Source: a virus
Direction: 5' to 3' (one strand)
IMG/VR virus record: IMGVR_UViG_3300034523_000118
Location: 1 to 48,986 of that record
Length of the DNA: 48,986 bases
Part shown: positions 3,944-47,068 of the stretch, one piece after another
Layout: each line of letters begins with the position of its first letter
How positions within the stretch are numbered: the stretch's first letter is position 1
Position numbers and translations under genes: made by a program
Notes under the pieces: generated by a model
What the model saw: the letters and a program-made list of their open reading frames with translations, nothing else
Databases searched by the model: none
What the model was told of the DNA's origin: nothing

Positions 3944-3972
3944 AATATGCACCAGTGCAATTTGGCTGTCAA
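3944..3972 (-). promoter_or_regulatory. PL-like leftward early promoter
   Basis: On the minus strand TTGACA (3972-3967) is followed after exactly 17 nt by CATATT (3949-3944). The spacer contains one operator and a second touches the upstream side of the -35, the expected layout of a repressed early promoter. It reads toward the LuxR-type, ssb and DUF2303 genes. Confidence 0.7.
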
Positions 3973-3984
3973 TGCACTGGTGCA
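3948..3984. promoter_or_regulatory. OL operators (two sites)
   Basis: TGCACCAGTGCA at 3948-3959 and its reverse complement TGCACTGGTGCA at 3973-3984 are identical 12-mers in opposite orientation, centres 25 bp apart. The same 12-mer occurs at 8643-8654 between the -35 and -10 of the cro-side promoter. They are therefore the likely binding sites of the CI and Cro proteins encoded here. Confidence 0.75.
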
Positions 3985-4069: not shown

Positions 4070-4085
4070 CTGGATGGATATACAG
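4070..4085. promoter_or_regulatory. LexA-like box before the DUF1654 gene
   Basis: CTG-N10-CAG (CTGGATGGATATACAG) has a good right half (ATATACAG) and a weaker left half compared with the LexA consensus. It ends 15 bp before the ATG at 4101 and could make the gene damage-inducible. I see no convincing -35/-10 pair for this gene between the OL operators and the box. Confidence 0.4.
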
Positions 4086-4100
4086 TTAAAGGAGAGCGAC

Positions 4101-4427
4101 ATGGCCAAGCAAAAGAAAGCAGCGCCTCAGGGGCGCCAAGAGGTCACCGGACTAGAGCGCCTAAGCCTGCGGGTTTCATCGATGATCAATCACCCGATTG
4201 CACAGTCGCAGCGTTGGGTGACGATCCATCGCCTGGACACGGATGGAGACATGGAGTGGGAGGAGGTGATGGGTCTGCTGGCCGAAACGCCTGAGCTGGA
4301 CCTGACGTTCAACGACGACGAGAGCGTGACCGTTCGGTGGGAGCCCCAGAGCGTCGAGGATCGTGACGACCTGGTCGTGGAGAAGGATTGGGAGGAGGAG
4401 AGAGTAGGGGAAGAGGTGCCTTTCTAG
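4101..4427 (+). CDS. DUF1654 family protein
   Basis: The 108-aa protein fits DUF1654, a family seen mainly in Pseudomonas genomes and prophages. Diagnostic stretches are LERLSLRVSSMINHPIAQSQ, VTIHRLDTDGDMEWEEVMGL and the strand pair DLTFNDDESVTVRWEP. The tail is highly acidic. The biochemical role is not known to me. The ATG at 4101 has AAAGGAG upstream and is preferred over the in-frame ATG at 4074, which overlaps the LexA-like box. It is the first rightward gene inside the immunity region. It may be SOS-controlled if the box at 4070-4085 is real. Confidence 0.8.
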   Translation: MAKQKKAAPQGRQEVTGLERLSLRVSSMINHPIAQSQRWVTIHRLDTDGDMEWEEVMGLLAETPELDLTFNDDESVTVRWEPQSVEDRDDLVVEKDWEEERVGEEVPF

Positions 4428-4579
4428 CTGATGGAATCTATGGCCTGCCCGTCCATACAGCATGGATGGAAAGCCAGTGGCGACTTCTATTTTGGCGTAG
4501 TACGGTCCGCCTCCAACAAACCACCCGGTTCGTTGCCTCCAATCCCACGGACCGGGACTCTCATGACCTGGGAGGTCGA

Positions 4580-4837
4580 ATGGAAGTCGCTCGAGAGATC
4601 AGCCAACAAGAATTGGATAACGCCCTGGTAGCCTTCGCCCGCTATAAAATCGGAGAAATCAAAATCTTCGACTTGGAGCAGGCAATGAGCTTCGAAGCGG
4701 GCGAAGCCTTATCCGAAAGCGGGCTGGTTCGGTTCTCAATAACCAAGATGGTGTCCGGACGGTATCGCATTAGCGATGAAGGGGAGAACGCCATCACACC
4801 GGCTGGTCGGGATCGCCTTGAGGTGATCCGCGCCTGA
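4580..4837 (+). CDS. Hypothetical protein, 85 aa
   Basis: The start is set by GGAGG at 4571-4575 just before the ATG. The peptide has a helical N-terminal half (EISQQELDNALVAFARYKIG, then a DLEQAMSF helix) and a C-terminal part resembling the wing of a winged helix (SGRYRISDEGENAITPAGRD). That suggests a small DNA-binding protein, but I recognise no family. It sits between the DUF1654 and diguanylate cyclase genes in the same direction. The 152 bp before it hold no better-supported gene. Confidence 0.5.
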   Translation: MEVAREISQQELDNALVAFARYKIGEIKIFDLEQAMSFEAGEALSESGLVRFSITKMVSGRYRISDEGENAITPAGRDRLEVIRA

Positions 4838-4905
4838 CTATAGGCAAGCCTGGCAACGGCCACAGACAGCTCCTGCGGCCATCTGCAAAACACAGGCAAA
4901 GAAAG

Positions 4906-4925
4906 GCCCGCACTGCTATGCGGGC
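4906..4925. terminator. Hairpin before the diguanylate cyclase gene
   Basis: GCCCGCA (4906-4912) pairs with TGCGGGC (4919-4925) over a 6-nt loop. On the minus strand it is followed by CTTTCTTTG, so it could act as a weak terminator there. A TATAAT hexamer at 5022-5027, without a clear -35, may be the -10 of the downstream gene. Confidence 0.4.
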
Positions 4926-5108
4926 TAACGTAGGGAAGCGGATGAGCTTTCACTGTGCAGGGCAGGGCGTGAAAAAAGCGTGAAGGCATGAAAAAGCCCC
5001 TCTGAGCCTAAGGATTGGCCTTATAATCCGGACCCGCAGGAAGACAGCTCTTCGCTTGTGCCCCTGCTTCCGGCTGCATATCGTTTTGTGCGCTCCCTGA
5101 GGTCTGTC

Positions 5109-6047
5109 ATGAATAATTTTGAAAGCGCGTCTATCAGAGCGCTGACCTTTCTGCGTCAAAAGCTCGGCTTCCAGTTATGTATGGTGACGCGTGCAGAGGG
5201 TAACGATTGGACTGTACTGCACAGTGACGATAAAGGGTACGGAGTTGTCCCGGGTGATGTCTTCAACTGGGATGATTCCTTCTGCTGCGAGATGGTCAAA
5301 GGGCTGGGGCCGAACATAGCCGCTGACGCAAACCAGGTGCCGGCGTATGCTGCAGCCGAGATCGGTCGAAAAATCCCGATCGGCGCCTACATCGGCGTGC
5401 CTCTTAGAATTGCGGATGGGCGATTATTCGGGACTTTGTGTGGGATAGATCCCTCTGTCCAGCCGGATGACATATCGGAACACCAAGAGCTGATTGAGAT
5501 GCTTGGTGAGATGCTTAGCACTATTTTGCAGATGGAACTGAGAGTCGACGAGGAGGAGAGGCGTGCGGAGCGATTCCAGGCCCAGGCTCTCACTGATGCC
5601 CTGACCGGACTGTACAACCGGGGTGGGTGGGAGCAACTGCTTGCCAAAGAAGAGGCGCGCTATCAGCGGTACCGGCAATCATCTGTCGTGATAGTTGTCG
5701 ATCTGGATGAGCTGAAAACCGTCAATGATCTTCAGGGGCACGCAGCGGGTGATTCTTTGATTAAACGCGCCGCGTCCGCATTACAGGCAGCCTCCAGGTC
5801 TGAGGATGTGGTTGCCAGGTTGGGAGGCGATGAGTTTGGGATTATCGGCGTTGGCTGTGACTTGGCCGCTGGCCAGGCGCTCTGCAGTCGACTAGAGGCG
5901 GCACTTGACGCTGAAGGTATCAAGGCATCGTATGGCCTTGCCGTCACAACCAGAAGCACTCGCATAGCAGCAGCATTGACCATTGCAGACAACGAGATGT
6001 ACGAGCAGAAGCGTCAGAAGAAAGCGGCGGATCTTCTGGAAGCATGA
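5109..6047 (+). CDS. GAF-GGDEF diguanylate cyclase
   Basis: The enzyme is expected to join two GTP into cyclic di-GMP, the second messenger that favours biofilm formation over motility. The 312-aa protein has an N-terminal GAF-type sensor domain (about residues 10-150), a helical linker rich in Glu/Arg, and a GGDEF domain (about 160-312). The signature DALTGLYNR, the metal/substrate segment VDLDELKTVND, an intact GGDEF at 239-243 and an RxxD inhibitory site (RSED, 230-233) five residues before it are all present, so it should be active and product-inhibited. The ATG at 5109 follows TGAGG; an upstream in-frame ATG has no site. It lies inside the prophage immunity region and ends at a bidirectional terminator. 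The GAF ligand is unknown. Confidence 0.92.
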   Translation: MNNFESASIRALTFLRQKLGFQLCMVTRAEGNDWTVLHSDDKGYGVVPGDVFNWDDSFCCEMVKGLGPNIAADANQVPAYAAAEIGRKIPIGAYIGVPLRIADGRLFGTLCGIDPSVQPDDISEHQELIEMLGEMLSTILQMELRVDEEERRAERFQAQALTDALTGLYNRGGWEQLLAKEEARYQRYRQSSVVIVVDLDELKTVNDLQGHAAGDSLIKRAASALQAASRSEDVVARLGGDEFGIIGVGCDLAAGQALCSRLEAALDAEGIKASYGLAVTTRSTRIAAALTIADNEMYEQKRQKKAADLLEA

Positions 6048-6051
6048 AAAA

Positions 6052-6075
6052 GCCCGCCGAGGCGGGCCATTCTTT
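6052..6075. terminator. Bidirectional terminator
   Basis: GCCCGCC (6052-6058) and GGCGGGC (6061-6067) form a tight stem, with a T-rich run to the right and an A-run to the left. It can therefore stop both the cyclase transcript and the convergent minus-strand cI-operon/KilA-N-like transcript. Confidence 0.85.
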
Positions 6076-6076
6076 G

Positions 6077-6982
6077 TCACTGCAACAGTTTCGGGTCTTG
6101 ATAAGAGGCGATAGCGAGCTGGGCAAATGATACGGGAAGAGATCGATCTTTTGCTTTCCCCTTGAGGTATGTCTCAAATTTGCCTTGGCCGATGTACGTC
6201 TCTCTGAACCATCTGCGAAACTCTCCAAGCGCGGCCTCTGGGTAGCAGTTCGACTCTTGAGGGTTTGATAGAGCTTGAGGGAAGTACTCGGGGTAGTTGT
6301 GAGCAAATTTCTTTCGCTCTCCAAACTGGAGTTCAAGATTGTTGTCTTTCCAGTGTCTGCCCCAATGCTGGCCAACGCTGATGTCTGGAACGAAATTGCT
6401 ATCAATGTGGAGCCCGCTTTGCCCAAGATGCAGAACCATGTCAGCAATCTCTTTGAAAACTCCGAAGTACCCTGCAGGGGCGGCGTTATAGACCAAAGAC
6501 ATCCTGTCGTGAAATTGCTTCCACTGCGCAGGGACATGGCTCTCCGGGTCGTACCCAACCTGGGTATAGATGAAATCGCGCAGGGCTTTGCCTGCCAGTA
6601 GCCTGAAATTCATCAGGGCTTCGTCTTTGCGATTTATGCCCGCTTCGAAAGCGTAGTACTCCAAAATAGCCAAGCAAACGCCGTCAGGGTACGCATGCGA
6701 TAGCGTTCCCTTATCCATGACTGCTGTATATGGTTCGTCGTAGCTCAGGCCGTGAGTTTGAAGCAGCGAATGAATTTTCAAGATCCCTGGCCGACCAGAT
6801 TTCCAATCATTCGCGATGTCGAGAATCGATGTGTGTTGAATCCCGCAAAGCCTGGCGAGGCCTCGAGCAGTCAAAAATGGAGTGCCGTCCGATAGCACGC
6901 CCATTCCAATGCCATCAATCTCAACCTGCGCGTCAATCGCTAGAGGCATTTGGGCCTGTGGGCTGGTGGGGAAATTTGCCAT
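6077..6982 (-). CDS. KilA-N/P63C-like prophage protein, candidate exclusion protein
   Basis: The 301-aa protein has an N-terminal region resembling KilA-N/BRO DNA-binding domains (LSDGTPFLTARGLARLCGIQ at about 31-50, then ILEYYAFEAGINRKDEALMN). Its C-terminal half resembles phage P63C-type proteins (WKQFHDRMSLVYNAAPAGYF, FKEIADMV, NYPEYFPQALSNPQESNCYP). It lies downstream of the cI repressor in the same direction, inside the OL-OR interval, where lambda carries rexAB. Prophage abortive-infection proteins of the BstA type share a KilA-N domain and this location, so that is one candidate role; antirepressor is another. It has a plausible promoter of its own but no clear ribosome-binding site. 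A terminator follows immediately. Confidence 0.6.
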   Translation of the reverse strand: MANFPTSPQAQMPLAIDAQVEIDGIGMGVLSDGTPFLTARGLARLCGIQHTSILDIANDWKSGRPGILKIHSLLQTHGLSYDEPYTAVMDKGTLSHAYPDGVCLAILEYYAFEAGINRKDEALMNFRLLAGKALRDFIYTQVGYDPESHVPAQWKQFHDRMSLVYNAAPAGYFGVFKEIADMVLHLGQSGLHIDSNFVPDISVGQHWGRHWKDNNLELQFGERKKFAHNYPEYFPQALSNPQESNCYPEAALGEFRRWFRETYIGQGKFETYLKGKAKDRSLPVSFAQLAIASYQDPKLLQ

Positions 6983-7002
6983 TTTTCATCGCATCCGTTT
7001 GA

Positions 7003-7030
7003 TTTATAACGATTTAATGGTGGTGGGCAA
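7003..7030 (-). promoter_or_regulatory. Possible promoter of the KilA-N/P63C-like gene
   Basis: On the minus strand TTGCCC (7030-7025) and TATAAA (7008-7003) are separated by 16 nt, about 20 nt before the start codon at 6982. It would allow expression in the lysogen independent of the cI promoter. Confidence 0.4.
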
Positions 7031-7073
7031 TTTGCATATCATCCCATCAGCCCCCCACAGGCCCTGCTATTGC

Positions 7074-7310
7074 TTAAACCTTACTTCGCTCAATCCGCCC
7101 CGCCTTCACCTCATCCCCATACCCCACCAACCGATCCTCCGCAGCCTGCATAACCTGGCAGATTCTGATCACAGCCTGGGCGTCATGCTCGTTTCTGGCC
7201 TGGCGCAGTCGTTCGGCAATGCGCATCAGTTCTACTGCTGACCATTTCAGGTCATTGGCCAGGTCTTGGAGCTCGCGGCGCAGCTGTTGGTTGGTTTTAG
7301 TAAGAGTCAT
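7074..7310 (-). CDS. Small coiled-coil-like protein, 78 aa
   Basis: An almost wholly helical, charged protein (TNQQLRRELQDLANDLKWSA, MRIAERLRQARNEHDAQAVI), likely a short coiled coil. I recognise no family. It lies 14 bp downstream of the secreted-protein gene and in the same direction as cI, so it is probably in the repressor operon and expressed in the lysogen. No strong ribosome-binding site is visible before the ATG at 7310. 6983-7073 is intergenic and holds the promoter described for the next gene. Confidence 0.6.
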   Translation of the reverse strand: MTLTKTNQQLRRELQDLANDLKWSAVELMRIAERLRQARNEHDAQAVIRICQVMQAAEDRLVGYGDEVKAGRIERSKV

Positions 7311-7324
7311 GGTAGGGGCTCAGC

Positions 7325-7657
7325 CTATCTGCAAGCTTCTGCGCCGACGTAATCGGCGATGGAGCCGGACACAATGGGACCCATCCGAAGATCAGGCTGG
7401 GAGGACTTCATCTGCTCCAAGGTTTCCCCGGTACCAAGATACTTCACTGTGCGATCTGCACAGTTGTAGAGACGGCGAGAAAAGGAGGTGCCACTTGATC
7501 CGACGCGCTTCGTAGTGATCGTACGCTCTTTGCCCGAGGTATCCCGGGCCAAGATGGTGTAGGTGGCCTTAGAGTCGGACGGCACGTGCAGATTTGCGGC
7601 CTGAGAAACCGCGGGGATCAGAGCTAAGGCCAAAAAGGCCGTAATCATTCGCGACAT
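7325..7657 (-). CDS. Secreted (periplasmic) prophage protein, 110 aa
   Basis: The N-terminus MSRMITAFLALALIPAVSQA is a typical Sec signal peptide, with cleavage likely after SQA. The mature part (about 90 aa) is strand-rich and contains two cysteines (YNCADRTVKY and the C-terminal EACR) that could form a disulphide. Start chosen at 7657 because AAGGAAAAGAT precedes it. The location between cI and the KilA-N-like gene suggests expression in the lysogen and a lysogenic-conversion or exclusion function at the envelope. No family recognised. Confidence 0.65.
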   Translation of the reverse strand: MSRMITAFLALALIPAVSQAANLHVPSDSKATYTILARDTSGKERTITTKRVGSSGTSFSRRLYNCADRTVKYLGTGETLEQMKSSQPDLRMGPIVSGSIADYVGAEACR

Positions 7658-7741
7658 ATCTTTTCCTTGATGGCGGTAATGGTCTCTGTCTAGCACTGCT
7701 CGCTAAATCCTTGCCAATGAACCGGAGGATGTTTCTATGGT

Positions 7742-8584
7742 TCACACCAGGTGAGCATTCCACACTAGTAGCACCCTGGCCTGGATGTAGGTTTCATCAA
7801 CCCGGATGTCCTCGGGCGGATGATTCGTGTTGTCCGAGATCATCTTGAAATGGTCGCGACCCTTCTTCTGCAGGCGCTTGATGTACTGATGGCCCTGGTG
7901 GGAGAAGTAGTAGATCCCGTCGCCCACGAACTCACGGATGCTGATGTCAACGACCAACGGGTCACGGCTCTTGATGGTTGGTGCCATGGACTGACCGACA
8001 CCCGTTATGAGCTTCAGATGAAAATGCTCTTTGAACTCGACCCCCATCTCTCGCAGGTGAGTAGGGCTGACGCGGATGTCCTGCAGCATTTCAGGGAAGT
8101 CGTGAGCTACTTCACCATCGCCCATTGCTCCGCGCACATCGTAGTGAGCAATCCACACCTCATCGCCGACCAGGCCTGGGCGAACGAAGTCGACGGCAAT
8201 GACATTGGAAGCGGCTTGCTCGGCAGACTTTTCCTCAATGGCTTCGGCGATTTTCTGCCGAGCATCCAGAGAAAGGCCCTTGCCATGCTTTGCGAGCATC
8301 TGCCTAACGATCTCGGCAGTAGATAGGTTTTTGCGGCCCTGGGCTTCAGGCTCGGCCTCACCTAAAGGTTCGTAGCCTCGCAACTGATCTGTGGTGATTC
8401 CAAAAAAATCTGCAAGAGGTCGCACCTGCTTGTCAGTCGGCTCTTTGATCCCTTTTGGGCCCTGCGGCTTGAGAATTCGGGAAATGGTCGACTGCCCGAC
8501 GCTTGTCCGGCTCGACAGCTCAATCTGGGTGATGCCGTCTCTGGCCATCAGTTGAGCAAGGATTTTATCTATCGATTTATGCAT
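7742..8584 (-). CDS. cI: CI-type phage repressor (HTH + S24 peptidase)
   Basis: The repressor keeps the prophage silent by binding operators at PL and PR, and is inactivated by RecA-stimulated self-cleavage. The 280-aa protein has an XRE-type HTH (about 8-45: GITQIELSSRTSVGQSTISR), a linker, and a LexA-like S24 domain with the catalytic serine at about 199 (GVGQSMAPT) and lysine at about 236 (YIKRLQ). I do not see the canonical Ala-Gly cleavage pair; cleavage may use a related site near RGAMGDG (151-157). The ATG at 8584 lies inside an operator-like 12-mer, suggesting direct autoregulation. GGGAGG lies 13 nt upstream of the start, slightly far. Confidence 0.93.
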   Translation of the reverse strand: MHKSIDKILAQLMARDGITQIELSSRTSVGQSTISRILKPQGPKGIKEPTDKQVRPLADFFGITTDQLRGYEPLGEAEPEAQGRKNLSTAEIVRQMLAKHGKGLSLDARQKIAEAIEEKSAEQAASNVIAVDFVRPGLVGDEVWIAHYDVRGAMGDGEVAHDFPEMLQDIRVSPTHLREMGVEFKEHFHLKLITGVGQSMAPTIKSRDPLVVDISIREFVGDGIYYFSHQGHQYIKRLQKKGRDHFKMISDNTNHPPEDIRVDETYIQARVLLVWNAHLV

Positions 8585-8654
8585 AGGTGCAATGCTGCCT
8601 CCCAGCAGTGCATAGAGCAATACAGCGGATCGTTGACAGTTATGCACCAGTGCA
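8580..8654. promoter_or_regulatory. OR operators (three sites)
   Basis: 8643-8654 is the exact TGCACCAGTGCA found at OL. 8601-8612 (CCCAGCAGTGCA) matches it at 9 of 12 positions. 8580-8591 (TGCATAGGTGCA) matches the reverse orientation at 10 of 12 and overlaps the cI start codon. Centres are 42 and 21 bp apart, whole helical turns, as expected for cooperative dimers on one face. Confidence 0.7.
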
Positions 8655-8661
8655 TGATGAT
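8633..8661 (+). promoter_or_regulatory. PR-like rightward early promoter
   Basis: A consensus TTGACA at 8633-8638 is followed after 17 nt by GATGAT (8656-8661). The best operator occupies the spacer, so binding would block RNA polymerase. It reads into the cro-like gene at 8687 and the replication operon. Confidence 0.7.
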
Positions 8662-8686: not shown

Positions 8687-8908
8687 ATGAGCGCTACCGA
8701 TCTTCCGAAAAAACTGGATGCATTGCTCGGCTCTGGCATGACCTACAAGGCCATTGCAGAGCGAGCCAAATGCGACATCTCGACAGTCTTCCGCATTCGC
8801 AATGGACAGATCAGCAACCCGAGCTACCTAGCCGGGACTGCGATAGACCAAATGCACGGTGAGCTGATCGAGAGTGGCAAGCACAGCCCAAAGCAATCCG
8901 TCGCCTAA
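8687..8908 (+). CDS. cro: Cro-like regulator, 73 aa
   Basis: A small helix-turn-helix protein divergent from cI, as Cro is in lambdoid phages. Residues about 15-45 (GSGMTYKAIAERAKCDISTV, FRIRNGQISNPS) form the HTH. The start at 8687 is fixed by AGGAGG 5 nt upstream; longer in-frame readings run back through the operator region and are rejected. It should bind the same operators as CI and favour lytic growth. Sequence divergence means the Cro role rests on position and size as much as on similarity. Confidence 0.8.
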   Translation: MSATDLPKKLDALLGSGMTYKAIAERAKCDISTVFRIRNGQISNPSYLAGTAIDQMHGELIESGKHSPKQSVA

Positions 8909-11907: not shown

Positions 11908-12329
11908 GCGCCGCTGCCATTCGTTCGCAAAAAACCAAGAAGCCTAGGGCAAAGCGTGTCGAGCGCGAGGGGCTCGAACAGGCTGCCCTGATGCAAGAGG
12001 TCGAGCTTCGATATCCCGAGGTTTTTGTGCACCTGCATCACATCCCAAACGGCGGTTTCCGAGGCATGGCTGAAGGCAAGAGACTCAAGGCCCAAGGTGT
12101 GAAGGCGGGTATTCCTGACCTGCAACTGACTATGGCTCGCGGTGGATATTTCGGCCTATTCATCGAATTCAAGGCAACAGTCAATCCTGCGGATGTCTCG
12201 CTCAGCCAGCAGGCTTGCATCGGTCGCCTGAACGCGCAAGGTTACTTGGCCGTGGTGTGCCGAGGTCAGTTCGACGCCATGGAATGCCTGCGCGCTTACC
12301 TGATGCTGCCAGCAACGGTGGCCGCATGA
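11904..12329 (+). CDS. VRR-NUC domain nuclease
   Basis: VRR-NUC proteins are PD-(D/E)XK-type nucleases that often cleave branched DNA. The 141-aa protein shows PNGGFRGMAEGKRLKAQGVK, AGIPDLQLTMARGGYFGLFI and EFKA, giving the catalytic IPD and E-x-K residues. The lysine/arginine-rich N-terminus may bind DNA. Phage stand-alone VRR-NUC proteins probably take the place of Holliday-junction resolvases such as RusA in nin regions. It overlaps both neighbours as ATGA. Confidence 0.88.
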   Translation: MSAAAIRSQKTKKPRAKRVEREGLEQAALMQEVELRYPEVFVHLHHIPNGGFRGMAEGKRLKAQGVKAGIPDLQLTMARGGYFGLFIEFKATVNPADVSLSQQACIGRLNAQGYLAVVCRGQFDAMECLRAYLMLPATVAA

Positions 12330-13624
12330 CTGCAACTCGGGAGGTGAAGTTGAGCGAGGCCGAGGTGCGCCGGCAGGCCGCTGACAAATCGGTGCGCGAC
12401 CTGCGCGACCCGCGGCACCCCGGCCTGTACCTGCGCTTCTGGAGCAACCGCGAGCGCGGCACCTGGCACCTGGTGCGCGGCAAGAAGTGGGTGCCGGTCG
12501 CCCGCTGGCCGGAACTGAGCGTTTCGGCGGTGATTGCCGAGTTGCCCGCGCTGCGTCAGCGCCTGCTGCGTGAGCCGGCTACAGCACTTGTGGTTTCGGG
12601 CATGGCTACCGTGGGCCAGCTGCTCGACTGGTACGCCGGCCGGATGGCGCTCGACCGTTCGCTGTCTGCAAAGCGCAAAGCCGCCGCCCGCTCCGCCATC
12701 GGGCAGCACCTTCGCCCATGCCTGGGCGATCTTCCAGTCAAGTACGTGACCGCCGAGCTGATCGACAAGCACCTGATCTGGCCAGCCCAGGCCAAGCTAT
12801 CGCTGTCCTATCTACGGCAGATGTTCGGCATGCTGCTGACCGCCTTCCGCCAAGCCTTTAAGCTGGAGATGATCGACAGCAATCCCTTGGCCGGGGTGCG
12901 CTTCAGTGACTTCACCAAGGCGAGAATCGCCCCCAAGGCAGCCCGCCTGCGTGGTGTGCACCTGCCCGAGCTGATGCAGCAATTGACTCAGGCATTCGAG
13001 GCGACCCCGACCGACGCCATGCTGGCCCTGATGATGCTGGCCCACGGCACCCGAATCGGCGAAACCCGCATGGCCCGCTGGAGTGACGTGACCCTGGCTG
13101 CCGCCGAGTGGTTCATTCCCGCAGCTCACACCAAGACCCGCACCGAGCACCGCCTGCCACTGACCGCTCAGCTCACGGCGTTGCTGATCCGGTACCGAGC
13201 GATTCAGCGGGCACAGGGTTATGAGGGCGCCTACTTGTTTCCGAACCGTCGTGGCCACTGCCTGAGCGAGACCCAGGCGAGCATGGTGTTCACCCGACTG
13301 GGGCAGGGCGAGTGGACCAGCCACGACCTGCGCAAGGTGTCCCGCACCACCTGGACAGACCTCGGCATCGACGGCCACATCGGCGAGATGCTGCTGAACC
13401 ACACGCTGGGCAAGATCGCTAGCACCTACATCCACACGCAGGCCATGGAGCAGCGCAAGTTGGCTCTGGAGAAGTGGCATGCGTGGCTTGACCGGATCGG
13501 ATTCACCGCCATCCACGGCCTTAAAGAGGCCTTATTTGAAATCCCGCAGAATTCGCCACAAGCCAACGGCGGCGAGGCCTCGGGCGACCTTAGCGAATTA
13601 GTTATTAGCGAGGATTCGAAGTGA
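12326..13624 (+). CDS. int: Tyrosine recombinase (phage integrase)
   Basis: The 432-aa protein carries the full catalytic set: Arg243 (GTRIGE), Lys270 (HTKTRTEHRLPL), His333 and Arg336 (TSHDLRKV), His359 (LLNHTLG) and the nucleophile Tyr368 (STYIHT). An N-terminal arm-binding region (about 1-80) and a core-binding domain (about 90-190) precede the catalytic domain. It should integrate and excise the phage at the tRNA-Cys site. Oddly, it lies 36 kb from attR, between replication and late genes, so it would be expressed with the early-right operon unless it has its own control. A decision on integration through PR rather than PL would be unusual. Confidence 0.93.
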   Translation: MTATREVKLSEAEVRRQAADKSVRDLRDPRHPGLYLRFWSNRERGTWHLVRGKKWVPVARWPELSVSAVIAELPALRQRLLREPATALVVSGMATVGQLLDWYAGRMALDRSLSAKRKAAARSAIGQHLRPCLGDLPVKYVTAELIDKHLIWPAQAKLSLSYLRQMFGMLLTAFRQAFKLEMIDSNPLAGVRFSDFTKARIAPKAARLRGVHLPELMQQLTQAFEATPTDAMLALMMLAHGTRIGETRMARWSDVTLAAAEWFIPAAHTKTRTEHRLPLTAQLTALLIRYRAIQRAQGYEGAYLFPNRRGHCLSETQASMVFTRLGQGEWTSHDLRKVSRTTWTDLGIDGHIGEMLLNHTLGKIASTYIHTQAMEQRKLALEKWHAWLDRIGFTAIHGLKEALFEIPQNSPQANGGEASGDLSELVISEDSK

Positions 13625-46012: not shown

Positions 46013-47068
46013 GTGGAAAAATTCTACGGAATACAATACTTGAGAGGCATCGCAGCTGGGCTGGTTATCATCTACCATTCTATGGTGATGATTGCTGTAG
46101 CACCGTACTTCGATAGTCCGGTGGGTGATTTTGGAGTAGACATATTCTTTGTCATATCTGGGTTCGTAATGTGGGTAACCACAGAAGGTCAGAATAAAAG
46201 TATAAGAGAGTTCTGGATTTCGCGGATATTGAGGGTTGCACCTTTATACTGGCTGTTCACGTTTGTGCTTGTCGCCGCCGCACTATTGATGCCAAGCTTG
46301 TTTTTCAACTCCCGCGGCGTCGATCCCGTATTCCTGCTTAAGTCGCTTTTGTTCATTCCCGCCCAAAACCCAGATGTTGGGGATGTCACGCCCGTTTACA
46401 CCATTGGATGGACTCTTACATATGAAATGTTTTTCTACGCAATATTCGGTCTATCCTTAGCATTGCAAAATCTTAGAATGAGGTTTTTGTTCATATTTAC
46501 AGTTATAGTTGCGCTTGCTACCGTTGGAACTGCTTTAGCTCCAGCAGGTCCAGTGGGCAAAACCTACACAAGCCCGATCATCATTGAATTTCTGCTTGGC
46601 GTCTTGCTAGGAGTTACCAGGCAGCGTTGGGTAGGTATCGGATTGTTGCCGACAAGCCTATTGATTGGCGCAAGTAGCGTGGCGCTAGTACTTTCTGATT
46701 TTACCGTGTTTGCTCGGGCTTTAGTATATGGCGTTCCGGCATTTTTCTTGGTCGCGGGATTTATTTCGCTTGAGAAGTACATTCGATCAAATGTTAATAG
46801 GGCGCTATTGTTGTTTGGGGAGGCATCGTATTCGCTGTATTTGTCGCATCCAATTTCTCAACGAATCTGGTACGTGCTATTTATATCGATTTTTGGGCAG
46901 ATAACTAACCCTGCGATGGCAGTTTGGTACGCGGTAGGCGCCGTTGCTGCTGGCCTTCTAGGCGGAATTGTATGCTATCTTCTTGTAGAGAGATATCTAC
47001 AGAAGCTGGCTAAAGTGATATCACGCTCTTACCTCAAGGCCGGCCGAGCTATTGAAGTGCAGCGCTAG
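46013..47068 (+). CDS. Acyltransferase 3 family membrane protein
   Basis: The 351-aa protein is a multi-spanning acyltransferase of the OafA/O-antigen acetylase type. It begins YGIQYLRGIAAGLVIIYHSM with the conserved Arg11 and His22, and has FGVDIFFVISGFVMWV and about ten hydrophobic segments. These enzymes O-acetylate surface polysaccharides. On prophages they commonly alter O-antigen and block adsorption of related phages. Start GTG at 46013, no strong ribosome-binding site. The gene is visibly more AT-rich than its neighbours and flanked by its own promoter and terminator, so it is a transferred moron. Confidence 0.88.
   Translation: MEKFYGIQYLRGIAAGLVIIYHSMVMIAVAPYFDSPVGDFGVDIFFVISGFVMWVTTEGQNKSIREFWISRILRVAPLYWLFTFVLVAAALLMPSLFFNSRGVDPVFLLKSLLFIPAQNPDVGDVTPVYTIGWTLTYEMFFYAIFGLSLALQNLRMRFLFIFTVIVALATVGTALAPAGPVGKTYTSPIIIEFLLGVLLGVTRQRWVGIGLLPTSLLIGASSVALVLSDFTVFARALVYGVPAFFLVAGFISLEKYIRSNVNRALLLFGEASYSLYLSHPISQRIWYVLFISIFGQITNPAMAVWYAVGAVAAGLLGGIVCYLLVERYLQKLAKVISRSYLKAGRAIEVQR

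What the first reader, a model, noticed from the sequence alone, without database searches (positions are those of the whole stretch)
4070..7696. Accessory island inside the immunity region
Between OL and OR, where lambda has rexAB, this prophage carries DUF1654, an unknown 85-aa protein, a diguanylate cyclase, a KilA-N/P63C-like protein, a helical protein and a secreted protein. Two convergent blocks share one bidirectional terminator (6052-6075). Genes in this slot are typically expressed in the lysogen and exclude other phages or alter the host, so this is the best candidate for an undescribed combined system.
Basis: partly seen in the sequence, partly recalled or inferred. Interest (0 to 1): 0.65.

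Follow-up and report, generated by a model that had tools for sequence, protein, structure and literature searches.

The report
Prophage BstA defence with self-immunity repeat
The 'accessory island' of this Pseudomonas prophage carries a known anti-phage gene, bstA, next to the prophage repressor; comparing its relatives shows that a short DNA repeat with a fixed 56-57 bp spacing, which probably lets each prophage switch off its own bstA, recurs across most of the bstA family.

Summary
The island is real. Genes lie between the repressor operators OL (3948-3984) and OR (8643-8654) of a D3-like lambdoid Pseudomonas prophage, in two convergent blocks sharing a terminator. So this is not an undescribed combined system. 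The diguanylate cyclase is a separate cassette: in two relatives the same DUF1654-cyclase block faces a different candidate defence pair (PDC-M32AB or PDC-M24AB), and a third lacks the cyclase. What is new is at the bstA start codon: a direct repeat (GCAAATTGCCC / GCAAATTTCCC, 56 bp apart) where BTP1 has its experimentally defined anti-BstA element (aba), whose CCCGCC repeats are also 56 bp apart. Across the family such clade-specific repeats recur at exactly 56 or 57 bp: 31 of 45 clusters at 70% identity, against 1.6 (max 6) for other spacings. I propose that aba is a two-site DNA element of fixed geometry, probably read by BstA's KilA-N-like domain. No experiment was run. The repeats are computed facts; aba function in this prophage is inferred.

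The parts
3948..3984 (.). OL: two repressor operators TGCACCAGTGCA (3948-3959) and TGCACTGGTGCA (3973-3984); leftward promoter-like hexamers TTGACA/CATATT (3972-3944) lie between and over them
   Evidence: exact 12-mer found only at 3948, 3973 and 8643 in the window; promoter scan
4101..4427 (+). DUF1654 protein (phrog_2707); start at 4101 preferred (AAAGGAG upstream), 4074 possible
   Evidence: Pfam PF07867 E 7.4e-25; PHROG E 8.7e-35
4580..4837 (+). 85-aa protein of unknown function
   Evidence: no family hit; no phage-record hit; in 12 of 300 Pseudomonas genomes
4981..4999 (+). left copy of a 19-bp direct repeat bounding the cyclase cassette
   Evidence: L293 homology to the window ends exactly at 4999
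5109..6047 (+). GAF-GGDEF diguanylate cyclase, 312 aa, with intact GGDEF and RxxD I-site
   Evidence: GGDEF E 2.7e-30, GAF E 2.9e-7; phrog_14602 E 5.3e-66; motifs read from the translation
6037..6055 (+). right copy of the 19-bp direct repeat
   Evidence: 89% identity to 4981-4999
6051..6068 (.). shared terminator hairpin of the two convergent blocks
6077..6982 (-). [quoted passage not shown]
   Evidence: PADLOC BstA E 2.6e-119; phrog_6287 'BstA abortive infection' E 1.2e-91; 43% to BTP1 BstA over 97% of length; AlphaFold models
6961..7035 (-). candidate aba (anti-BstA) element spanning the bstA start codon
   Evidence: position and geometry match BTP1 aba; family-wide repeat spacing
7025..7035 (-). 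aba copy A: GCAAATTGCCC (continues ACCACC to 7019), upstream of the start codon
6969..6979 (-). aba copy B: GCAAATTTCCC (continues CACCAGCC to 6961), first codons of bstA
7074..7310 (-). 78-aa helical protein, phrog_6388, often next to a cI gene in Pseudomonas prophages
   Evidence: PHROG E 9.9e-32; 121 of 200 Pseudomonas genomes; 18 of the 30 best hits have a CI-like gene close by
7325..7657 (-). 110-aa secreted protein with a signal peptide and two cysteines, phrog_13843
   Evidence: PHROG E 4.9e-52; relatives in P1-like phage D6 and Klebsiella phages
7742..8584 (-). CI repressor (HTH plus S24 domain)
   Evidence: Peptidase_S24 E 3.4e-15; PHROG repressor E 3.3e-32
8643..8654 (.). OR operator TGCACCAGTGCA, beside promoter-like TTGACA/GATGAT (8633-8661)
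8687..8908 (+). Cro-like repressor
   Evidence: phrog_6223 E 1.9e-24

Best explanation
The slot is a mosaic cargo site of a D3-like lambdoid Pseudomonas prophage. Its main functional gene is bstA. Made from the cI-side transcript in the lysogen, BstA would act on replicating DNA of an incoming phage and stop its replication, so that the infected cell dies without progeny. When this prophage is itself induced, BstA is switched off by aba, a DNA element at the bstA start codon made of two direct repeats of a clade-specific 7-13 bp word, 56 or 57 bp apart. [quoted passage not shown] Shown here: membership in the BstA family, position behind cI, the repeat and its fixed spacing across the family. 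Inferred: that the window's repeat is a working aba, that BstA binds it, and which domain does so. The diguanylate cyclase cassette, the 85-aa gene, the secreted protein and phrog_6388 are separate passengers.
For: BstA identity. Position downstream of cI, as in BTP1, CL707 and D14H. BTP1 aba is a 63-bp DNA element over the bstA start with terminal CCCGCC repeats, and a single change in either repeat abolishes function (PMC8585504); these repeats lie 56 bp apart in BTP1 and its relatives. In the window GCAAATTGCCC/GCAAATTTCCC lie 56 bp apart across the start codon, and no other exact match to GCAAATTNCCC occurs in the window. Family test anchored on a conserved protein motif, so independent of start-codon choice: repeats scoring >=6.5 at 56/57 bp in 56/98 clusters (93% identity; other spacing pairs mean 3.0, max 14), 31/45 (70%; mean 1.6, max 6) and 16/21 (55%; mean 0.7, max 3). 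Replication on new loci under 70% identical to the first set: 12/18 against mean 1.4, max 4. Each upstream copy matches its own downstream copy better than those of other loci (7.47 against 6.17, 0 of 2000 permutations). A spacing of 56 is not a multiple of 3, and copy A lies wholly upstream of the start in 22 of 31 loci, so the constraint is mostly on DNA, not protein. Similarity of copy A tracks the N-domain (partial r 0.24) and not the C-domain (0.04), more than flanking control DNA does (0.05, 0.02).
Against: No binding, expression or phage-challenge data. About a third of clusters show no repeat at 56/57 bp by this score; some are near misses (L049 has a perfect 13-bp repeat at 55 bp), others show nothing. 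For the window alone the repeat is only moderately unusual (shuffle p 0.015). The N-domain link is partly confounded by physical linkage: DNA between the repeats also correlates, up to 0.19. Owen et al. saw no loss of BstA foci with excess aba, so direct binding is unproven. No link was found between having the repeat and having a recognisable cI upstream (p=1; the cI model was narrow).
Confidence: 0.72

Rival explanations
1. One reading: cyclase, BstA and the small genes form one combined exclusion system that acts through c-di-GMP.
For: They lie side by side between OL and OR; the cyclase block recurs in the same slot in L106 and L107.
Against: The partner changes: PDC-M32A/B in L106, PDC-M24A/B in L107, bstA here. 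The cyclase sits between 19-bp direct repeats and is absent from the otherwise matching L293. Most bstA loci have no cyclase. The blocks are convergent, and the promoter-like match for the cyclase block overlaps an OL operator.
Confidence: 0.05
2. The repeats flanking the bstA start are an autoregulatory operator of BstA rather than, or as well as, an anti-BstA element.
For: Copy A lies just upstream of the start codon in many loci; BstA has a KilA-N-like domain (PMC8585504).
Against: In BTP1 the repeat-bearing element suppresses BstA activity as DNA, with minimal transcription, and works in trans on a high-copy plasmid. The position of the repeat relative to the start codon varies while the spacing does not.
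Confidence: 0.2
3. The fixed 56/57-bp repeat is an artefact of shared ancestry or of in-frame protein repeats.
For: 57 is 19 codons, and in the AAGGAAATC clade both copies can lie in the ORF. Related loci inflate counts.
Against: It holds at 55% identity clusters and in an independent set. The repeated word differs between clades and matches within a locus beyond permutation. Copy A is usually non-coding, and 56-bp spacing is out of frame.
Confidence: 0.05

Closest known systems
BstA-aba of Salmonella prophage BTP1 (Owen et al. 2021, PMC8585504)
   Same: Full-length BstA homologue (43% identity), gene in the cI transcript direction between cI and OL, direct repeats 56 bp apart over the bstA start codon.
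   Different: Different repeat word (GCAAATTNCCC(C)ACCA against CCCGCCA). Here two small genes lie between cI and bstA. No functional data for this protein.
Immunity region of lambdoid phage CL707 and rexAB slot of lambda
   Same: Cargo gene between cI and OL; CL707 carries a bstA homologue there.
   Different: Here the slot also holds a second, convergent block (DUF1654, 85-aa protein, cyclase).
PDC-M32A/B and PDC-M24A/B (PADLOC candidate defence pairs)
   Same: Occupy the bstA position in relatives L106 and L107, opposite the same DUF1654-cyclase block.
   Different: Unrelated proteins; candidate systems only; the M24 matches are weak (E 6e-13 and 1e-6).
KilA-N / Bro-N / antirepressor proteins
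   Same: Predicted structure matches viral KilA-N, Bro-N and antirepressor models (best E 6.9e-5).
   Different: Global TM-scores are low, no solved structure matches well (DdrC, E 0.07), and no KilA-N or P63C Pfam domain is recognised in 43 members.

Membership tests
BstA | Full-length sequence homology to BstA | tested here: met
   PADLOC E 2.6e-119 over 7-297 of 301; 43% to BTP1 BstA over 97%
[quoted passage not shown]
   Two-domain model with low pLDDT around 141-150; viral KilA-N/Bro-N structure matches; C-domain folds alone, pTM 0.82. No Pfam KilA-N hit
BstA | Prophage location downstream of the repressor gene | tested here: met
   CI 7742-8584 and bstA 6077-6982 on the same strand, two small genes between, no strong terminator found between
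BstA | Inhibits phage DNA replication, abortive infection | not testable with these tools
   needs phage challenge
aba element | Direct repeats flanking the bstA start, about 56 bp apart | tested here: met
   GCAAATTGCCC/GCAAATTTCCC, 56 bp
aba element | Suppresses the cognate BstA as DNA | not testable with these tools
   needs phage or plasmid complementation
Lambdoid (D3-like) prophage immunity region | cI and cro divergent, shared operators at OL and OR | tested here: met
   capsid gene 78% identical to D3 DNA
Diguanylate cyclase | GGDEF domain with intact active-site motif | tested here: met
   Pfam GGDEF E 2.7e-30; GGDEF and RSED motifs in the translation
Single combined BstA-cyclase system | Conserved linkage of cyclase and bstA | tested here: not met
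   cyclase found with PDC-M32AB and PDC-M24AB instead; most bstA loci lack it

The most novel reading that the evidence does not exclude
aba is a family-wide, two-site DNA recognition element: nearly every BstA clade has its own 7-13 bp word written twice at a fixed 56-57 bp, and the pair, read by the KilA-N-like domain, marks the prophage's own DNA as self. This predicts the aba of most bstA prophages from sequence alone and implies a geometric self/non-self check.
Probability: 0.6. Interest if true: 0.62.

Novelty: new member of a known kind. Interest (0 to 1): 0.5.

Why it matters
BstA is a prophage abortive-infection protein that comes with its own off-switch, and how the DNA element aba silences BstA was left open (PMC8585504). 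In the text available to me aba was mapped to the base pair only in BTP1. A fixed-spacing repeat present in most clades turns the question into direct tests: two sites, one geometry, one clade-specific word. It also allows a prediction of which BstA-carrying prophages could escape each other's BstA.

Tried and rejected
Combined cyclase-BstA system: rejected on independent assortment. RNA family in the window: none in Rfam. Solved-structure relatives of BstA: none by sequence; by fold only weak DdrC (E 0.07) and nothing for the C-domain. Link between having the repeat and having a recognisable cI upstream: none (p=1; the cI model was narrow). Conserved middle element between the repeats (ATCAA about 20 bp after copy A): weak, not pursued. 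First attempts with a wrong frame for the 85-aa ORF failed. Broad class-level genome search found bstA only in the seed genome. Literature search on the aba repeat beyond Owen 2021 found nothing in the open-licence library.

Full report
WHAT IS THERE. The window is a 48,986-base IMG/VR record of a lambda-like Pseudomonas phage. It has a terminase, portal, head and tape-measure protein, an O-like initiator and a single-strand DNA-binding protein, with a capsid gene 78% identical to phage D3. CI (7742-8584, minus) and Cro (8687-8908, plus) diverge. Between them lie two convergent blocks: rightward DUF1654, an 85-aa gene and a GAF-GGDEF cyclase; leftward, downstream of cI, a secreted protein, a 78-aa helical protein and a 301-aa protein. 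They share the hairpin 6051-6068.

THE KEY GENE IS BSTA. The 301-aa 'KilA-N/P63C-like' protein matches PADLOC BstA at E 2.6e-119 and PHROG 6287 'BstA abortive infection system' at 1.2e-91, and is 43% identical to BstA of Salmonella phage BTP1 along its length. BstA is a published prophage defence protein that stops phage DNA replication by abortive infection; it usually sits downstream of the repressor (PMC8585504). The same place is used in BTP1, CL707, Klebsiella phage RCIP0114 and Pseudomonas phage D14H. bstA is uncommon in the genus: 5 of 400 Pseudomonas genomes.

THE CYCLASE IS A SEPARATE CASSETTE. Its nearest relatives, L106 (98%) and L107 (92%), lie in the same slot with DUF1654 on one side and phrog_6388 plus CI on the other, but the gene pair facing the cyclase is PDC-M32A/B or PDC-M24A/B, PADLOC candidate defence pairs, instead of bstA. 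A 19-bp direct repeat bounds the cassette (4981-4999, 6037-6055). In L293 the DUF1654-85-aa block matches the window up to exactly base 4999 and then runs into a terminator, with no cyclase and with two other genes on the cI side. Cyclases 59-81% identical were found in six other Pseudomonas genomes with no hit to the other slot genes nearby. The slot is therefore a mosaic site with exchangeable defence cargo, and the cyclase is a passenger that may alter c-di-GMP in the cell. The only promoter-like match for the rightward block overlaps an OL operator, so it may be silent in the lysogen; this is inference.

THE NEW OBSERVATION. In BTP1, self-immunity depends on aba, 63 bp over the bstA start codon with terminal CCCGCC repeats, each required (PMC8585504). 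In the window the start codon of bstA is flanked by GCAAATTGCCC (7035-7025) and GCAAATTTCCC (6979-6969), 56 bp apart. Looking at 55 non-redundant bstA loci, direct repeats pile up at exactly 56 and 57 bp: mean best score 4.83 and 5.22 against 3.11 (sd 0.18) for the other spacings from 15 to 120. Two further scans gave new loci; those under 70% identical to the first set repeat the result, 12 of 18 against a mean of 1.4 and a maximum of 4 for other spacing pairs. Anchored on the conserved MGVL motif, so that start-codon choice does not matter, 56/98, 31/45 and 16/21 clusters (93, 70, 55% identity) carry the repeat, against means of 3.0, 1.6 and 0.7. The word differs by clade: CCCGCCA in BTP1 relatives, CACCACC types, TTTGGGTACCACC, GATCCC, AAGGAAATC, TGGTCACCA. 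Within a locus the two copies match each other better than other loci's copies. Position relative to the start codon varies; spacing does not.

MECHANISM PROPOSED. Owen et al. showed that aba acts as DNA and is clade-specific. A fixed centre-to-centre distance points to one protein assembly touching both copies. [quoted passage not shown] linkage is only partly controlled. The simplest model: BstA's N-domain reads the pair on the prophage's own DNA, and the occupied pair holds BstA inactive. The C-domain folds confidently alone (pTM 0.82) and matches no solved structure; its activity is unknown.

LIMITS. No expression or phage data. About a third of clusters lack a detectable repeat at this spacing. 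The window's own repeat is only moderately unusual by itself; the case rests on the family. I could read only open-licence papers and no supplementary files, so an earlier description of the spacing cannot be excluded.

VERDICT. Observation confirmed; the 'undescribed combined system' is not supported; the locus is a new member of the BstA-aba kind. The family-wide aba geometry is the part worth following.

Noticed in passing
46013-47068: An O-acetyltransferase (phrog_3333, E 1.4e-45; weak O-antigen acetylase match) at the right end, a likely receptor-modifying conversion gene and thus a second possible exclusion function of this prophage.
   Followed up: no
12215-13624: A tyrosine-integrase-like gene (phrog_1, E 2.4e-46) lies between the replication genes and the terminase, an unusual place for a lambdoid integrase.
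   Followed up: no
7325-7657: The small secreted protein (phrog_13843) has relatives in P1-like phage D6, next to the portal gene, and in two Klebsiella phages: a mobile periplasmic moron of unknown role.
   Followed up: partly
L106:7023-8506; L107:6984-8256: Candidate defence pairs PDC-M32A/B and PDC-M24A/B occupy the bstA position of the same slot in related prophages; the slot looks like a good place to look for new defence genes.
   Followed up: partly
L293:5000-5740: The same slot in another Pseudomonas prophage holds 98-aa and 111-aa genes on the cI side, the latter a coiled-coil protein with a possible C-terminal membrane helix; not identified.
   Followed up: no
window 6077-6529: The BstA C-terminal domain folds confidently on its own (pTM 0.82) but has no solved structural relative.
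   Followed up: partly
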